Below are positions 39,330 through 43,807 of a DNA stretch of 64,000 bases, piece after piece; the stretch's first letter is position 1, and every line of letters starts with the position of its first letter. The notes beneath the pieces are model-generated. The model saw only the letters and a list, made by a program, of their open reading frames with translations, searched no databases and was not told the origin of the DNA. A program made the position numbers and the translations under genes. The stretch is from Microbacterium sp. SORGH_AS_0888 (GTDB lineage: Bacteria; Actinomycetota; Actinomycetes; Actinomycetales; Microbacteriaceae), in assembly GCF_030818905.1 (NCBI RefSeq), contig NZ_JAUTAZ010000001.1, forward strand, positions 3,410,001-3,474,000, given 5' to 3'.

Positions 39330-40260
39330 ATGACGATGGCGGAACGAAGAGGTGCGCTCGCCATCGCTCTCCTCGCCCTTCTGCTCGTGATCGGCGCCCT
39401 CCTGGGGAACGTCCTGCAGCCGCCCGCGGACCGCGTGGTCGTCGAAGACGCGGCCCCGCTGGGGTGGGCGGCGCCCGTGCTCCTCGTCCTCGCGGCCGCA
39501 TGGGTCGTGATCGGGGTGCTCGCCGCACGCACGCGCCTGGTGGGCCGGCCGGGCGCCGCGGCGGCCCGGGCGACCTGGCTCGCGTCGAGCCGACCGTGGC
39601 GTGCCCGCGAGTCGACTCTCGGTCTCCTGCCGTTGGACCGTTGGCTCATCTTCCTCGTGCCGGTCGCGCTGCTGGTGGCGACCCGGATGGTGCAGACCGG
39701 GCTGCGCGGGTGGGTGCACCTGGTGGTGACCGTCGGGGCCTGGGCCGCGTTCGCGCTCGTGCTCCGCGCCGCGGTCGGGCGCCGCTCGCCGTGGCCGGTC
39801 ATCGCCGCGGTCGGGGGGAGTCGTCGTGCTCCGCTGCATCGTGACGCTCGCGGCGATCTCGATCACCGGGCGGGCGGGCTTCTCCGACGAGTTCTGGACG
39901 CAGCCGGTGCTGCGCGGCGCTTTCGTCGCCGTCGCGTTCACGCTGTTCGTCTGGACCTTCGTCGCAGCCGTGTGGGCCCTGAAGCTGCAGGGCGGCGCGC
40001 GCTACGCGGGCGGCGGGATCCTCGCGGCCCTCGGTGCCGGTCTCGCCCTTCCCGCGCTCGGGATCGCCCTCGTCGGCGCGGTGGACGTCGTGGCGAACTG
40101 GGACGACGGGCTCGGCCTGATCCCGCACTCGATCATCGCGACGCTCCACCCGGGTGCGGTCGAGCCGCTCGCCTGGGCGGCCGTGGCGATCGGCGCAGTG
40201 CTCGCGGCCGCGGGGTCGCTCGTGATCAGGGTGAAGCGCTCAGACCCCTCGGGCCGATAG
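39330..40260 (+). pseudogene. Polytopic membrane protein, split by a +1 shift in a G6 run
   Basis: The frame from ATG 39330 encodes several membrane helices (AIALLALLLVIGALLGNVLQ onward) to VIAAVGG. The next frame continues LRCIVTLAAISITGRAGF ... GSLVIRVKRSDPSGR to TAG 40260. Removing one G from the G6 at 39813-39818 joins them into about 309 aa with 7-8 helices. ATG lies 6 nt after TAGGCT. The stop is 26 nt before the cyclase start, so it is probably the first gene of that operon. No family is recognised. Confidence 0.7.
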
Positions 40261-40286: not shown

Positions 40287-42413
40287 ATGACGGAGGACCG
40301 CACACCGGCCAACGGGCGGATACGCAGGAGGCTCGGCATCCAGTCGCGCCTGTTGATCATGTTGATGGCGGTGAGCCTCGTCAGCGCCGGCGTGGTGGGC
40401 GTCATCGGCTACGTCAACGGCCGCGACTCGCTCCGAGATGCCGTCGTCGACCAGCTCACCGCGGTGCGCGAGCTGCGCACGGGCGAGATCAGCGCGCTCA
40501 TCGGGGAGATCCAGCGGGAGGCGTCGCTCGCGACCGACAACTCGAGCGCCCTCGACGCCTCGGCGGCGCTCAACCGCGGCTGGGACGCACTCGCCGGCGC
40601 GCAGCTGAGCGCCGAGCAGCGTGACGCGCTCACCGGCTACTACCGCGACACGTTCCTGCCGAAGGTCCAGTCCGCGACCGGTGAGACCTATGCCGACTCC
40701 GCTTTCGTCCCCGACTCCGCCGCGGGCGCCTATCTTCAGTACTGGTACACGCGCCAGGGCGGCGGGACGGATGCCGCGCTCTCGCTCCTGGACCCCGGCG
40801 ACGGCAGCGCCTACTCCGCGGCGCACGCCCGGGCACAGGGCTATTTCACGGACCTCGTCGACACGGTCGGCTACGAGGACGTGCTGGTCATGAACCTCGA
40901 CGGGAACGTGGTGTTCAGCGCCTACAACGGCGTCGAGCTCGGCACGGACCTCGACAAGGGGCCGTATCGCGGGAGTCTTCTCGCGAAGGCCTACCACGAC
41001 GCGATCGCGACCAACTCGGTCGACACCGTCATCACGACGGACATGGAGAGCTGGCTGCCCTCGTTCGGCGCGGCGACCATGTGGGTCGTCTCGCCGATCG
41101 GCAACGCGAACGGCATCACCGGCGCCATGGCGCTCCAGATCCCCGTGTCCTGGATCAACGACGTCATGACCGGGTACGACCGGTGGGACTCCCAGGGGCT
41201 CGGTCGAACGGGCGAGGTGTACCTCGCCGGCACCGACGGACTCATGCGCTCCAACTCCCGGTCGCTGATCCAGGACCCGAGCACGTATGCCCAGGCCGTG
41301 ATCGACAACGGCACGCCCCCGGATGTCGCGAACCGCATCGTCGCGGTCGGCGACACGGTCATCCGCCAGCCGGTCGATCAGGCGGCCGTACAGGAGGCGA
41401 TCGCGGGCAAGACCGGGACGATGACGTCGGCCCAGTACATTGGCTCGGAGAGCATCACCGCCTACGGTCCGGCGAACATCGAAGGACTCGACTGGGTCGT
41501 CGTCGCCCGCATGGAGACCTCCGAGGCCTTCGCGCCGGTGGCGGAGTTCACCCGCAATCTCGTGCTCTCGACCCTCGGACTGCTGCTGTTGGTCAGCGTC
41601 CTCGCGCTCGTGCTCGCGCAGGCCTTCACCCGGCCGGTCCGCCGACTCGCGGATGCCGTGCACCGGGTGTCCGACGGCGACTACGACGTGCGCGTCCCCG
41701 TCGGCGGAACGGACGAGATGGGCGAGCTGTCGCGAGCGTTCAACGAGATGGCCGGAACCCTCCGCGTCAAGGAGGACCTCATCCGCCATCAACGTGCGGA
41801 GAACGACCGGTTGCTGCACACCCTCATGCCGGACAGCCTGGCCGAGCGCTATCGCGAGGGGGAGGAGACCATCGCCGAGCAGCACGACGACGTGACGGTC
41901 GTCTTCGCCGAGCTCCTCGGCTTCGACGACTTCTCGCGGTCGCTGGACGGACACGAGGAGACCCTCGCCCTCAACGAGCTCATGCGCGGCTTCGATGAGG
42001 TCGCGGCCCGCACGGGCGTCGAGTCCGTCCGCACGCTGCGCGGCGGGTACCTCGCGACCTGCGGCCTCACGGTGCCGCGCGTGGACAACGCGCGTCGTGC
42101 CGTCGAGTTCGCGCTGGGGATGCGAGAGACCGTGCGGCAGTTCAACGACCGCACGGGCGCATCGCTCGACCTGCGCGCGGGTGTGCACAGCGGGTCGGTC
42201 ACGAGCGGCCTCGTCGCGCGCACCACGCTCGCGTACGACCTGTGGGGCGACGCGGTGAGCCTCGCCGGACGTGTGCGCCGCGCGGTCGACGAGCCCGGCG
42301 TCTACGTCAGCGACGCCGTGCACGATCGGCTCCACGGGCTGTGGGAGTTCGTGCAGGCGGGGACGGTGGACACCGCAGGCACGGCCGGGACGGTCTGGCG
42401 GGTCGAGGCGTGA
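40287..42413 (+). CDS. Receptor-type class III nucleotide cyclase, degenerate active site
   Basis: The 708-aa protein has helix 1 (about 23-43), a large extracytoplasmic sensor (45-425, Cache-like with VTVVF-independent strands and WVVSPIGNANGITGAMALQI), helix 2 (425-446), and HAMP (447-500, ending SRAFNEMAGTLRVKEDLI). The cyclase domain spans 530-708. Canonical residues are changed: the metal Asp of FADI is Glu542 (VVFAELLGF), the second metal Asp is Gly586 (TLRGGYLATCGL), substrate Lys is Arg582, and the catalytic Asn is Ser658 (WGDAVSLAGR). Asp651 and Arg662 remain. Catalysis is doubtful. Its stop overlaps the channel gene. Confidence 0.88.
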   Translation: MTEDRTPANGRIRRRLGIQSRLLIMLMAVSLVSAGVVGVIGYVNGRDSLRDAVVDQLTAVRELRTGEISALIGEIQREASLATDNSSALDASAALNRGWDALAGAQLSAEQRDALTGYYRDTFLPKVQSATGETYADSAFVPDSAAGAYLQYWYTRQGGGTDAALSLLDPGDGSAYSAAHARAQGYFTDLVDTVGYEDVLVMNLDGNVVFSAYNGVELGTDLDKGPYRGSLLAKAYHDAIATNSVDTVITTDMESWLPSFGAATMWVVSPIGNANGITGAMALQIPVSWINDVMTGYDRWDSQGLGRTGEVYLAGTDGLMRSNSRSLIQDPSTYAQAVIDNGTPPDVANRIVAVGDTVIRQPVDQAAVQEAIAGKTGTMTSAQYIGSESITAYGPANIEGLDWVVVARMETSEAFAPVAEFTRNLVLSTLGLLLLVSVLALVLAQAFTRPVRRLADAVHRVSDGDYDVRVPVGGTDEMGELSRAFNEMAGTLRVKEDLIRHQRAENDRLLHTLMPDSLAERYREGEETIAEQHDDVTVVFAELLGFDDFSRSLDGHEETLALNELMRGFDEVAARTGVESVRTLRGGYLATCGLTVPRVDNARRAVEFALGMRETVRQFNDRTGASLDLRAGVHSGSVTSGLVARTTLAYDLWGDAVSLAGRVRRAVDEPGVYVSDAVHDRLHGLWEFVQAGTVDTAGTAGTVWRVEA

Positions 42414-43807
42414 ACGCACTGCTCGGCGAGGGGTGGGTCTGGTGGGCGTTCGCGCTCGCGGTCGGGCTCCCGCTCGTGCTGGTCGTGCTCACCGAGGTCA
42501 TCAGCATCCTTCGCCGGCGTCGGAGCCCCGTCGTCAAGCCGCTCCTGCTGCTGCGCAACTGGGTCGTCCCGGTGGCGGCGCTCGTCGCGCTGCTGGCGTT
42601 CGCGACCCGCTCCGACCAGGACCTGATCTGGGTACGCATCGTCGGCACGGTGTTCGGCTTCCTGCTCATCCTGCTCGTGCTGTCGGCGCTCAACGTCGCG
42701 CTCTTCTCGACCGCGCGGGCGGGAACCTGGCGCGAGCGCGTGCCGACGATCTTCATCGAGATCGCACGACTCCTGCTGGTCGTCGTCGGCCTCGCGCTCC
42801 TGTTCCAGGTGGTCTGGCAGGCGGATGTCGGCGGTCTCATCGCCGCGCTCGGGGTCACATCGATCGTCATCGGCCTCGCGCTGCAGAACGCCGTCGGCGG
42901 CATCGTCTCCGGGCTGCTCGTCCTCTTCGAGCAGCCTTTCAAGATCGGCGACTGGATCGACACGGGCGATGCGAACGGACGCGTCGTCGAGGTCAACTGG
43001 CGCGCGCTGCACATCGAGACCGGATCGGGCGTCCAGGTGATCCCGAACGCCAAGCTCGCAGCGGCCTCGTTCCGCAATCTCAGCCGTCCTGCCGGGCCCT
43101 TCGCGGTGACGATCCCGGTCGTCTTCGCGCCCTCCGATCCGCCCGAGCGCGTCCGGGCGCTGCTGCGGGATGTCGGTGAGCGGCTGCCCCAGCGCCTGGT
43201 CGGCCGCCCCGTCGAGGTCGACTATCTCGGCGCCGGGTCCTTCTCCGCTGCCATCCCCGTGCTCTCGCCCGCGTTGCAGGGCGAGACGACCGGTGTCTTC
43301 CTCGGACGCCTGTGGTACGCGGCGCGCCGTGCGGGCCTGGCGCTCGACAAGATCGCCTCCGATCCCGAGCAGCACCGGACGGCCCTCGCCGTCGCGCTCG
43401 AGGGCGCGGCGCGGGCACTCCACCTCGACGGGCCGCTCCGTGAGGATGCCGAGAAGATGTGCCGCATCGAGACCTACGCCGCGGGCGAGCTCCTCGGCCG
43501 TGCCGGCGAGGTGCCGGACGCGGTGCGCTACGTCGTCGCCGGGTCCGCCCGCGTGACGGCGCCGACCCCGCGCGGCGACGTCGAGTGCGGCACGATCGAC
43601 GCGGGCGAGCTGATCGGCAGCGCCGCGCTCACCCGGGAACGTTCCCGGGTCTCCGTCGTGACCCGCGAGACCTCCTCGGTGCTCGTGCTGCCGGTGGAGT
43701 TCGCGAACCGGGTGATCCGCGCGCACCCGATCTTCGCGTCCGAGCTCGGCGCGGACCTGGAGCTGCGCCGGGAGCAGGCCGCGCACGCCGTCGACGCGAG
43801 CCGCTGA
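42410..43807 (+). CDS. MscS-like channel with C-terminal cyclic-nucleotide-binding domain
   Basis: The 465-aa product starts at GTG inside the cyclase stop (GTGA). It has four membrane segments and the MscS pore and beta domain (SIVIGLALQNAVGGIVSGLL, then EQPFKIGDWI, residues 151-183; VQVIPNAKLA). A Crp-like domain covers 344-440 (GELLGRAGEVPDAVRYVVAG; GELIGSAALTRERSRVSVV). This is the architecture of bacterial CNG (bCNG) channels. In the phosphate-binding cassette the ribose-binding Glu (IGEL in Crp) is Ser404, while an Arg (413) is kept. Ligand identity is therefore open. Confidence 0.88.
   Translation: MNALLGEGWVWWAFALAVGLPLVLVVLTEVISILRRRRSPVVKPLLLLRNWVVPVAALVALLAFATRSDQDLIWVRIVGTVFGFLLILLVLSALNVALFSTARAGTWRERVPTIFIEIARLLLVVVGLALLFQVVWQADVGGLIAALGVTSIVIGLALQNAVGGIVSGLLVLFEQPFKIGDWIDTGDANGRVVEVNWRALHIETGSGVQVIPNAKLAAASFRNLSRPAGPFAVTIPVVFAPSDPPERVRALLRDVGERLPQRLVGRPVEVDYLGAGSFSAAIPVLSPALQGETTGVFLGRLWYAARRAGLALDKIASDPEQHRTALAVALEGAARALHLDGPLREDAEKMCRIETYAAGELLGRAGEVPDAVRYVVAGSARVTAPTPRGDVECGTIDAGELIGSAALTRERSRVSVVTRETSSVLVLPVEFANRVIRAHPIFASELGADLELRREQAAHAVDASR

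What the first reader, a model, noticed from the sequence alone, without database searches (positions are those of the whole stretch)
40287..43807. Cyclase-channel pair in which both nucleotide sites have drifted
A receptor-type class III cyclase overlaps by 4 nt with an MscS-like channel carrying a Crp-like domain, which suggests a direct signal-to-channel module. Seen in the sequence: cyclase metal Asp to Glu542, second metal Asp to Gly586, Lys to Arg582, Asn to Ser658; in the channel cassette the ribose-binding Glu is Ser404. Known: those residues are needed for canonical class III catalysis and cNMP binding, and bCNG channels have this architecture. Inference: the pair may use a different nucleotide, or the pseudo-cyclase may gate the channel as a ligand sensor by contact. 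An extracytoplasmic sensor then controls ion flux.
Basis: partly seen in the sequence, partly recalled or inferred. Interest (0 to 1): 0.75.

Follow-up and report, generated by a model that had tools for sequence, protein, structure and literature searches.

The report
Receptor pseudo-cyclase paired with MscS-like channel
This bacterium has a two-gene unit, a cell-surface sensor ending in a nucleotide-cyclase domain that looks inactive and a pressure-type ion channel whose cyclic-nucleotide pocket has also lost a key binding residue; because relatives across many actinobacteria share both losses, the pair probably controls the channel without the usual messenger cAMP.

Summary
In detail: the cyclase residues and Ser404 are as read and the genes overlap by 4 nt. 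But this is not drift in one genome. Of 201 relatives of the cyclase, none keeps the base-contact Lys (197 Arg, 4 His), 3 keep the second metal Asp, and none of 197 readable channels keeps the pocket Glu. Sixteen ordinary actinobacterial class III loci aligned alike keep all six residues. The unit is nearly always cyclase, then channel. The window's genome has one class III and one cNMP-binding match, these two. Family-wide, the cyclase domain is as constrained as the pore. The lost sites vary, whereas Arg582, Asp651, an acid at 542 and a new channel motif with Arg409 are conserved. Best explanation: a non-catalytic receptor controlling its channel without cAMP/cGMP, probably by contact. A base switch is less likely, since pyrimidine cyclases keep both Asp. 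Contact is not shown; fusion and covariation tests gave no support. Mycobacterial pairs belong to the clade, so the architecture is known; I found no description of the family-wide loss.

The parts
40287..42413 (+). Receptor pseudo-cyclase gene (708 aa): TM, dCache sensor, TM, HAMP, class III cyclase homology domain
   Evidence: AlphaFold2 model mean pLDDT 85.9
40869..41504 (+). dCache_1 match, extracytoplasmic sensor (residues 195-406)
   Evidence: 7.6e-8, below the Pfam cut-off
41610..41765 (+). HAMP domain (442-493)
   Evidence: median dN/dS 0.056 over 228 close pairs of relatives
41874..42380 (+). [not shown]
   Evidence: median dN/dS 0.097
41910..41912 (+). Glu542 at first metal position; acidic in all 201 relatives (D 132, E 69)
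42030..42032 (+). Arg582 in place of base-contact Lys; R 197, H 4 of 201
42042..42044 (+). Gly586 in place of second metal Asp; eleven residue types in the family, Asp in 3 of 201
42237..42239 (+). Asp651, base-contact Asp, kept in 201 of 201
42258..42260 (+). Ser658 in place of Asn (Asn in 106 of 201)
42270..42272 (+). Arg662, transition-state Arg, kept here (145 of 201; Gln in 47)
42410..42413 (+). 4-nt overlap GTGA (channel start / cyclase stop)
42410..43807 (+). MscS-like channel with C-terminal CNBD-like domain (465 aa)
   Evidence: AlphaFold2 model mean pLDDT 88.8
42890..43087 (+). MscS beta domain (161-226)
43469..43723 (+). [not shown]
43619..43621 (+). Ser404 in place of ribose-binding Glu; 0 Glu in 197 readable relatives
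43634..43636 (+). Arg409 of the replacement motif G[QLH][TS][AT]L[TS]R; Arg in 145 of 151 non-redundant channels
43646..43648 (+). Arg413 at the canonical phosphate-Arg position; one of the most variable columns of the domain in the family (98th percentile), Arg in 4 of 197 relatives

Best explanation
It is a two-protein ligand-controlled channel. The dCache receptor senses something outside the cell, and HAMP passes the signal to a class III cyclase domain that no longer makes cNMP. This pseudo-cyclase dimer, perhaps still holding a nucleotide through Arg582, Asp651 and the single acidic metal residue, acts on the neighbouring MscS-like channel through its repurposed CNBD, which carries a conserved G-Q/L-T-A-L-T-R motif (GSAALTR here) instead of a cNMP pocket. 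Ion flux thus follows the external signal without a diffusible messenger. Shown: pairing, loss of both sites across the family, purifying selection, intact folds (predicted), and no other PF00211 or PF00027 match in this genome. Inferred: no catalysis, no cNMP binding, contact between the two proteins, and the direction of gating.
For: Linkage: 57 channel and 57 cyclase matches (three of the copies on broken contigs) in the same 53 of 198 genus genomes; all 53 intact pairs fetched lie cyclase-first, same strand, -8 to +39 nt; 59 of 59 further pairs from the family scan likewise, -8 to +20 nt; a channel found in 78 of 80 named loci. Neighbouring genes are not shared: of nine valid window neighbours searched (a tenth query was cut out of frame), each occurs in at most 8 of 53 genus loci. 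Sites: no Lys582 in 201, Asp586 in 3 of 201, no Glu404 in 197, against 16 of 16 control loci with D-K-D-D-N-R. No partner: the window's genome has one PF00211 and one PF00027 match at E <= 0.001, both in this pair; in 44 of 52 pair-bearing genus genomes with a PF00211 match the pair's own cyclase(s) are the only ones. Selection: median dN/dS 0.097 for the cyclase domain, 0.094 pore, 0.056 HAMP, 0.233 sensor (228 close pairs), 0.212 CNBD (215 of these). Pattern: Arg582 152/154, Asp651 154/154, acid at 542 154/154 and Arg409 145/151 conserved, while 586 and 413 are among the more variable columns. The pair family is one clade (SH-aLRT 99) apart from ordinary cyclases (97).
Against: No direct evidence of contact: none of the best 120 hits of a search with a read-through ORF was a clean fusion, and mutual information between the two proteins showed no cyclase-CNBD enrichment (17 of the top 200 column pairs, 13.6 expected); the excess lay between cyclase or HAMP and the channel's TM region (38 against 15.6 and 24 against 8.0), which shared ancestry may explain. 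A cyclase dimer and, by analogy with E. coli MscS, a channel heptamer do not match in symmetry (recalled). Arg662 is kept here and L319 reads D-R-D-D-N-R, so weak activity is not excluded for all members; two other genus cyclases (L227, L228) also read Arg in the Lys column. Loss of the pocket Arg alone lowered cAMP activation only 5-fold in mammalian RI-alpha (PMC6440977 passage), and 3 of 12 ordinary genus CNBDs also lack Glu. The window's own small clade is less constrained than the family: against L033 and L034 dN/dS is about 0.42 for the CNBD, 0.17-0.22 for the cyclase domain and 0.36-0.51 for HAMP.
Confidence: 0.5

Rival explanations
1. The CNBD-like pocket binds another small molecule (nucleoside, 2-oxoglutarate-like acid or a metabolite), and the pseudo-cyclase changes its local supply or helps to load it; the channel is still ligand-gated, not contact-gated.
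For: The new motif around Arg409 is strongly conserved. Precedent: kinetoplastid PKA regulatory subunits lost the phosphate Arg and bind nucleosides (PMC6440977 passages; PDB 6hyq listed). NtcA chains are among the profile matches; its 2-oxoglutarate ligand is recalled.
Against: The ribose Glu is lost too, unlike a simple nucleoside switch. A small-molecule ligand does not by itself explain why the channel is so rarely found without the pseudo-cyclase.
Confidence: 0.2
2. The cyclase makes a non-canonical cyclic nucleotide that the altered channel pocket recognises.
For: Lys to Arg at the base-contact position is nearly fixed (197 of 201), which could change base choice; weak PycC match (2.4e-6, 24.9 bits).
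Against: Second metal Asp absent in 198 of 201 and the column very variable. Pyrimidine cyclases keep both Asp, and the PycTIR CNBD keeps Gly, Glu, Arg (PMC11224242 passages).
Confidence: 0.1
3. Residual adenylate or guanylate cyclase activity: Glu542, Arg582 and Asp651 suffice for slow, Mn-dependent synthesis, and the channel binds cAMP weakly.
For: An acid is kept at 542 and Asp at 651 in all 201; Arg662 kept here; L319 keeps five of six residues.
Against: 586 carries eleven residue types, Asn658 and Arg662 vary, and Glu404 is gone in all 197 readable channels.
Confidence: 0.12
4. The pseudo-cyclase is half of a heterodimer with an ordinary cyclase elsewhere in the genome and modulates cAMP synthesis; the channel responds to that cAMP.
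For: Several mycobacterial-type carriers (family f6, genus g9) hold a further class III cyclase (second matches), and 8 of 52 genus carriers hold another PF00211 match.
Against: No second class III match in the window's genome nor in 44 of 52 genus carriers. The distant loci with two cyclases (L126-L128) lack the first metal Asp in both partners.
Confidence: 0.03
5. The locus is decaying and has no function.
For: One decayed copy seen (L157), a lone CNBD fragment in G166, and weaker constraint in the window's clade.
Against: Family medians of dN/dS 0.06-0.23 by domain, open frames, and near-strict co-retention.
Confidence: 0.03

Closest known systems
Mycobacterial Rv2435c / Rv2434c type pair
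   Same: dCache-HAMP-class III cyclase next to MscS-CNBD gene. Mycobacterium and Mycolicibacterium loci of the same family were fetched (e.g. L155, L164, L189). The dCache of Rv2435c is in print (PMC4822843 passage); both genes are named in the 2004 survey (PMC2447327: search counts 10 and 3; only abstract and section list seen).
   Different: The M. tuberculosis sequences were not fetched; identity with this family is by architecture and recalled gene order. Mycobacterial members mostly have Asp at the first metal site (L181 has Glu) and often Gln at 662.
bCNG channels (MscS superfamily with C-terminal CNBD; Caldwell 2010, Malcolm 2012, seen only in the reference list of PMC4560390)
   Same: MscS pore plus C-terminal CNBD fold
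   Different: Pocket Glu lost in all 197 readable members; a conserved replacement motif instead
Receptor-type class III adenylyl cyclases (Rv1625c, AC9)
   Different: Lacks the second metal Asp and the Lys; Glu for the first metal Asp
Pycsar (PycC with CNBD effector)
   Same: Cyclase gene beside a CNBD effector; weak PADLOC match
   Different: Pycsar keeps both Asp and the pocket Glu/Arg; here an external sensor is attached
KCNH channel CNBHD and kinetoplastid PKA-R
   Same: CNBD folds that lost cNMP binding; weak sequence matches to 2mhf and 3ukn (E 0.013 and 0.031; 2mhf as a KCNH-type domain is recalled). KCNH is regulated by protein contact (recalled), PKA-R by nucleosides.
   Different: Tetrameric K channels and a kinase subunit; no KCNH-like strand after the last helix in the model. 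CRP and other cNMP-binding domains match better with the family profile.

Membership tests
Catalytically competent class III nucleotide cyclase | Cyclase homology domain fold | tested here: met
   [not shown]
Catalytically competent class III nucleotide cyclase | Two metal-binding Asp | tested here: not met
   Glu542 and Gly586; second Asp in 3 of 201 relatives
Catalytically competent class III nucleotide cyclase | Base-contact Lys/Asp pair | tested here: not met
   Arg582 with Asp651; Lys in 0 of 201
Catalytically competent class III nucleotide cyclase | Asn and Arg of the transition state | tested here: not met
   Ser658, though Arg662 is kept
Catalytically competent class III nucleotide cyclase | cNMP synthesis | not testable with these tools
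   needs an assay
bCNG channel | MscS pore domain and C-terminal CNBD fold | tested here: met
bCNG channel | cNMP pocket Glu | tested here: not met
   Ser404; 0 Glu in 197; CRP Glu aligned there
bCNG channel | cNMP pocket Arg | tested here: inconclusive
   Arg413 here, but Arg in only 4 of 197 relatives at this very variable column
bCNG channel | Gating by cNMP | not testable with these tools
   needs electrophysiology
Pycsar | Class III cyclase with both metal Asp plus CNBD effector with Glu/Arg pocket | tested here: not met
   feature list from PMC11224242 passages; PADLOC PycC only 24.9 bits
KCNH-type CNBHD | Intrinsic-ligand strand after the C helix (recalled) | tested here: not met
   Model ends in helix 441-464, no following strand
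Rv2435c/Rv2434c-type actinobacterial pair | dCache-HAMP-CHD gene directly followed by MscS-CNBD gene, one clade | tested here: met
   Mycobacteriaceae loci fall inside the same clade with adjacent channels; the M. tuberculosis genes themselves were not fetched

The most novel reading that the evidence does not exclude
A new mode of bacterial channel control: a receptor pseudoenzyme, which has lost cyclase catalysis but kept a base-contact pair and one acidic metal residue, senses an outside ligand (and perhaps inside ATP or GTP) and opens or shuts a dedicated MscS-type channel by docking on a CNBD turned into a protein-binding module. It would be spread over many Microbacteriaceae and Mycobacterium species and filed today as cAMP signalling.
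Probability: 0.35. Interest if true: 0.85.

Novelty: new variant of a known kind. Interest (0 to 1): 0.6.

Why it matters
Databases name these receptors adenylate/guanylate cyclases (source names) and papers on mycobacterial cAMP count Rv2435c among the adenylate cyclases (PMC3938503, PMC3961136 passages). If the pair signals without cNMP, those labels mislead, and an MscS-type channel under direct control of an extracellular receptor would be a new kind of bacterial ligand-gated channel. The genus genomes where the pair holds the only class III domain make the question cleanly testable outside pathogens.

Tried and rejected
Natural fusion as proof of contact. L153 reads as one ORF, but only through a 1-nt deletion relative to L152. 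Used as a query (1341 hits, best 120 seen) it gave P0130, P0132 and P0137 as longer mixed proteins: P0130 and P0137 are incomplete and look out of frame near their ends, and P0132 jumps from mid-HAMP into the channel, losing the cyclase domain and the first channel helix. None is a clean fusion. Long open frames in the family scan (up to 1382 aa) were not fusions: 0 of 59.

Covariation between the two proteins (149 rows, effective 111): the top scores lay slightly above 8 of 8 near-relative re-pairings, with an excess between cyclase or HAMP and the channel's TM region and none for cyclase-CNBD; too few sequences, inconclusive.

Complementary heterodimer in the two-cyclase loci (L126-L128): neither partner has the first metal Asp; rejected.

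Class IV cyclase as a cAMP source: one CYTH match, a family with several functions; not followed. Other cyclase classes were not searched for.

Conserved gene neighbourhood beyond the pair: not found with about 5 kb of flank; one of ten queries was cut out of frame and is worthless. Structure comparison of the sensor and the pore: the lists were filled by the cyclase and CNBD domains, so these parts are untested by fold.

Literature searches (held open-licence library only) found no description of the family-wide loss; subscription papers are not covered, and the body of the 2004 survey could not be read.

Rows dropped: L126-L128, L153 and L157 from the final motif counts; L153, L157, L187, L193, L202 and L126-L128 from the gap tally. 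The sets overlap: 202 rows hold 186 distinct cyclases. The controls are 16 loci picked from the non-pair cyclase matches (plus L227 and L228); the 12 control CNBDs are high-scoring matches picked.
Full report
What is there. The cyclase gene runs from 40287 to 42413 (+) and the channel gene from 42410 to 43807 (+), sharing GTGA. The first encodes a 708-aa receptor with dCache, HAMP and a class III cyclase domain, the second a 465-aa MscS-like channel with a C-terminal CNBD. Asp651, Arg662 and an Arg at 413 are kept. The roles of these positions are established knowledge of class III cyclases and CNBDs (recalled), checked against mammalian AC9, control cyclases, E. coli CRP and the Pycsar study.

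Is it an alignment error or chance? Unlikely. Sixteen loci of ordinary class III cyclases from other actinobacterial genomes, picked from the non-pair matches, were aligned together with 144 pair cyclases (window included). All 16 (17 ORF rows) read D-K-D-D-N-R at the six positions; the window reads E-R-G-D-S-R. Two more distant genus cyclases (L227, L228) read D-R-D-A-N-R, so an Arg in the Lys column is not by itself proof of loss. For the pocket, 9 of 12 ordinary genus CNBDs have Glu at column 404 and none of 140 pair channels (window included) does.

Is it confined to this genome? No. In the genus, 53 of 198 genomes hold the pair (57 copies, three of them on broken contigs; four genomes have two types), and each of these genomes has both genes; in G163 the two pieces lie on different contigs, so adjacency could not be seen. 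One further genome, G166, has only a 72-residue CNBD-like fragment. The 53 intact copies fetched lie cyclase first, same strand, -8 to +39 nt apart. A family scan found the channel in 64 of 398 genomes; all 59 newly fetched loci have the cyclase in front of it, -8 to +20 nt. They come from Microbacterium, Agromyces, Leucobacter, Curtobacterium, Agreia, Herbiconiux, Frigoribacterium, Leifsonia and other Microbacteriaceae, from Arthrobacter, Occultella, a Propionibacteriaceae MAG, and Mycobacterium/Mycolicibacterium, with a few unplaced MAGs. A channel was found in 78 of 80 (three of them cut by a contig end); L157 is a truncated cyclase without channel and L193 an intact cyclase without channel. 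In a phylum scan of 396 genomes there were 14 full-length channel matches in 13 genomes, the window's included, and three more distant ones (L126-L128) have a second pseudo-cyclase on the other side of the channel.

What is lost and what is kept. Over 201 relatives (186 distinct cyclases with the window, 154 after 90% reduction): base Lys 0 (Arg 197, His 4); second metal Asp 3 (L296, L319, L323); first metal position always acidic (Asp 132, Glu 69); Asp651 201; Asn658 106; Arg662 145. One member, L319, reads D-R-D-D-N-R, one residue from canonical. In the channel, Glu404 is absent from all 197 readable rows. Conservation tells which sites still matter: Arg582 (152/154), Asp651 (154/154), the acid at 542, and Arg409 of the channel (145/151) are constrained, whereas column 586 is in the 88th percentile of variability although it stands inside the strongly conserved stretch V-R-T-L-x-x-G-Y-L-A-S-C-G-L, and column 413 is in the 98th percentile. 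So sites specific to catalysis have been released, while the base-contact pair, one acidic residue and a new channel motif are held. This is inference from conservation, not a binding test.

History. On a tree of 75 cyclase domains built without the six columns, the 53 pair cyclases used form one clade (SH-aLRT 99), apart from 16 ordinary cyclases (97). Asp-to-Glu at 542 needs three changes. The loss of Lys and of the second Asp therefore most likely predates the spread of the pair; the window inherited it. Branches to L126-L128 are long and their place is unsure; it was a quick search without bootstrap.

Selection. Among 228 close pairs of loci (not independent of each other), median dN/dS is 0.097 for the cyclase domain, 0.094 for the pore, 0.056 for HAMP and 0.233 for the sensor; it is 0.212 for the CNBD (215 pairs). 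The dead enzyme domain is thus as constrained as the pore across the family. Against that, the window's own three-member clade is less constrained: with L033 and L034 the values are about 0.42 for the CNBD, 0.17-0.22 for the cyclase domain and 0.36-0.51 for HAMP, and its channel motif departs a little from the consensus (GSAALTRE).

Isolation. The genome of the window (one contig, 99.98% complete) has exactly one PF00211 and one PF00027 match at E <= 0.001, the two genes of this pair. In the genus, 64 of 198 genomes have a PF00211 match; of the 52 pair carriers among them, 44 have none other than the pair's and 8 have more. A catalytic partner is therefore lacking in most genus carriers. For CNBD proteins the genus picture differs: 105 of 198 genomes have a PF00027 match, often in other proteins. 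One CYTH protein (class IV cyclase or triphosphatase family) is present in the window's genome; other cyclase classes were not searched for.

How it most likely works. A sensor without catalysis and a pocket without its ribose Glu, retained together, suggest that the message does not travel as cAMP or cGMP. Contact between the pseudo-cyclase and the CNBD-like domain is the simplest route and I put it at about one half. The main rival is a different small-molecule ligand in the CNBD; kinetoplastid PKA, where the phosphate Arg is gone and nucleosides bind, is the precedent, and the same paper notes that loss of this Arg in a mammalian subunit cost only 5-fold in cAMP activation and that sequence alone did not predict the ligand (PMC6440977, passages). 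A non-canonical product is less likely, because cyclases that switched to UTP or CTP keep both metal Asp and their receptor keeps Gly, Glu and Arg (PMC11224242, passages). My two attempts at direct evidence for contact, fusions and covariation, did not support it.

Known or new. The pair is known in outline from mycobacteria: the 2004 survey names Rv2435c (10 times) and Rv2434c (3 times) (PMC2447327; full-text counts, abstract and section list seen, no passage readable). Rv2435c is called a mammalian-type cyclase in PMC3961136 (passages) and a dCache protein in PMC4822843 (passage), and its expression was followed as one of the adenylate cyclases in PMC3938503 (passage). Rv2434c is linked to cAMP signalling in PMC11205783 (passages). 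I found no text that treats both sites as lost across the family (searches listed under Tried and rejected). I file it as a new variant of a known kind.

Noticed in passing
window 39330-40260 (+): The membrane-protein gene just upstream of the cyclase lies in two overlapping pieces in different frames (39330 to about 39830, and 39826-40260), while the matching pieces in L035, L038 and L040 are spaced in one frame (coordinates): an apparent frameshift or sequencing error.
   Followed up: partly
L126, L127, L128: Distant actinobacterial loci with two different pseudo-cyclases flanking one MscS-CNBD channel; neither has the first metal Asp. A further genome, G353, has two similar cyclases on separate contigs.
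   Followed up: partly
L153 near 8000: Leifsonia aquatica: a 1-nt deletion relative to L152 makes cyclase and channel one open frame.
   Followed up: yes
L157 and L193: L157 (Microbacterium sp. 8M): truncated cyclase and no channel, a decayed locus. L193 (Mycobacterium MAG): intact cyclase without a channel downstream, the only intact orphan seen.
   Followed up: partly
G166:C1:673594-673809: A lone 72-residue fragment 44% identical to the channel's CNBD in a genus genome without the pair; perhaps a remnant.
   Followed up: no
L187 and L202: Two cyclase-channel pairs in tandem in Mycobacterium simulans and Mycolicibacterium palauense.
   Followed up: no
L319 (G882:C49): The only member found with D-R-D-D-N-R, that is, all canonical cyclase residues except the Lys; it could be a natural test of residual activity.
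   Followed up: no
P0132 (924 aa, metagenome): Sensor with half a HAMP joined in frame to the channel without a cyclase domain or first channel helix: assembly deletion or a natural sensor-channel joint.
   Followed up: partly
L186: A pair in a MAG labelled Acidobacteria groups with a Mycobacterium copy (L155) in the tree; mis-binning or transfer.
   Followed up: no
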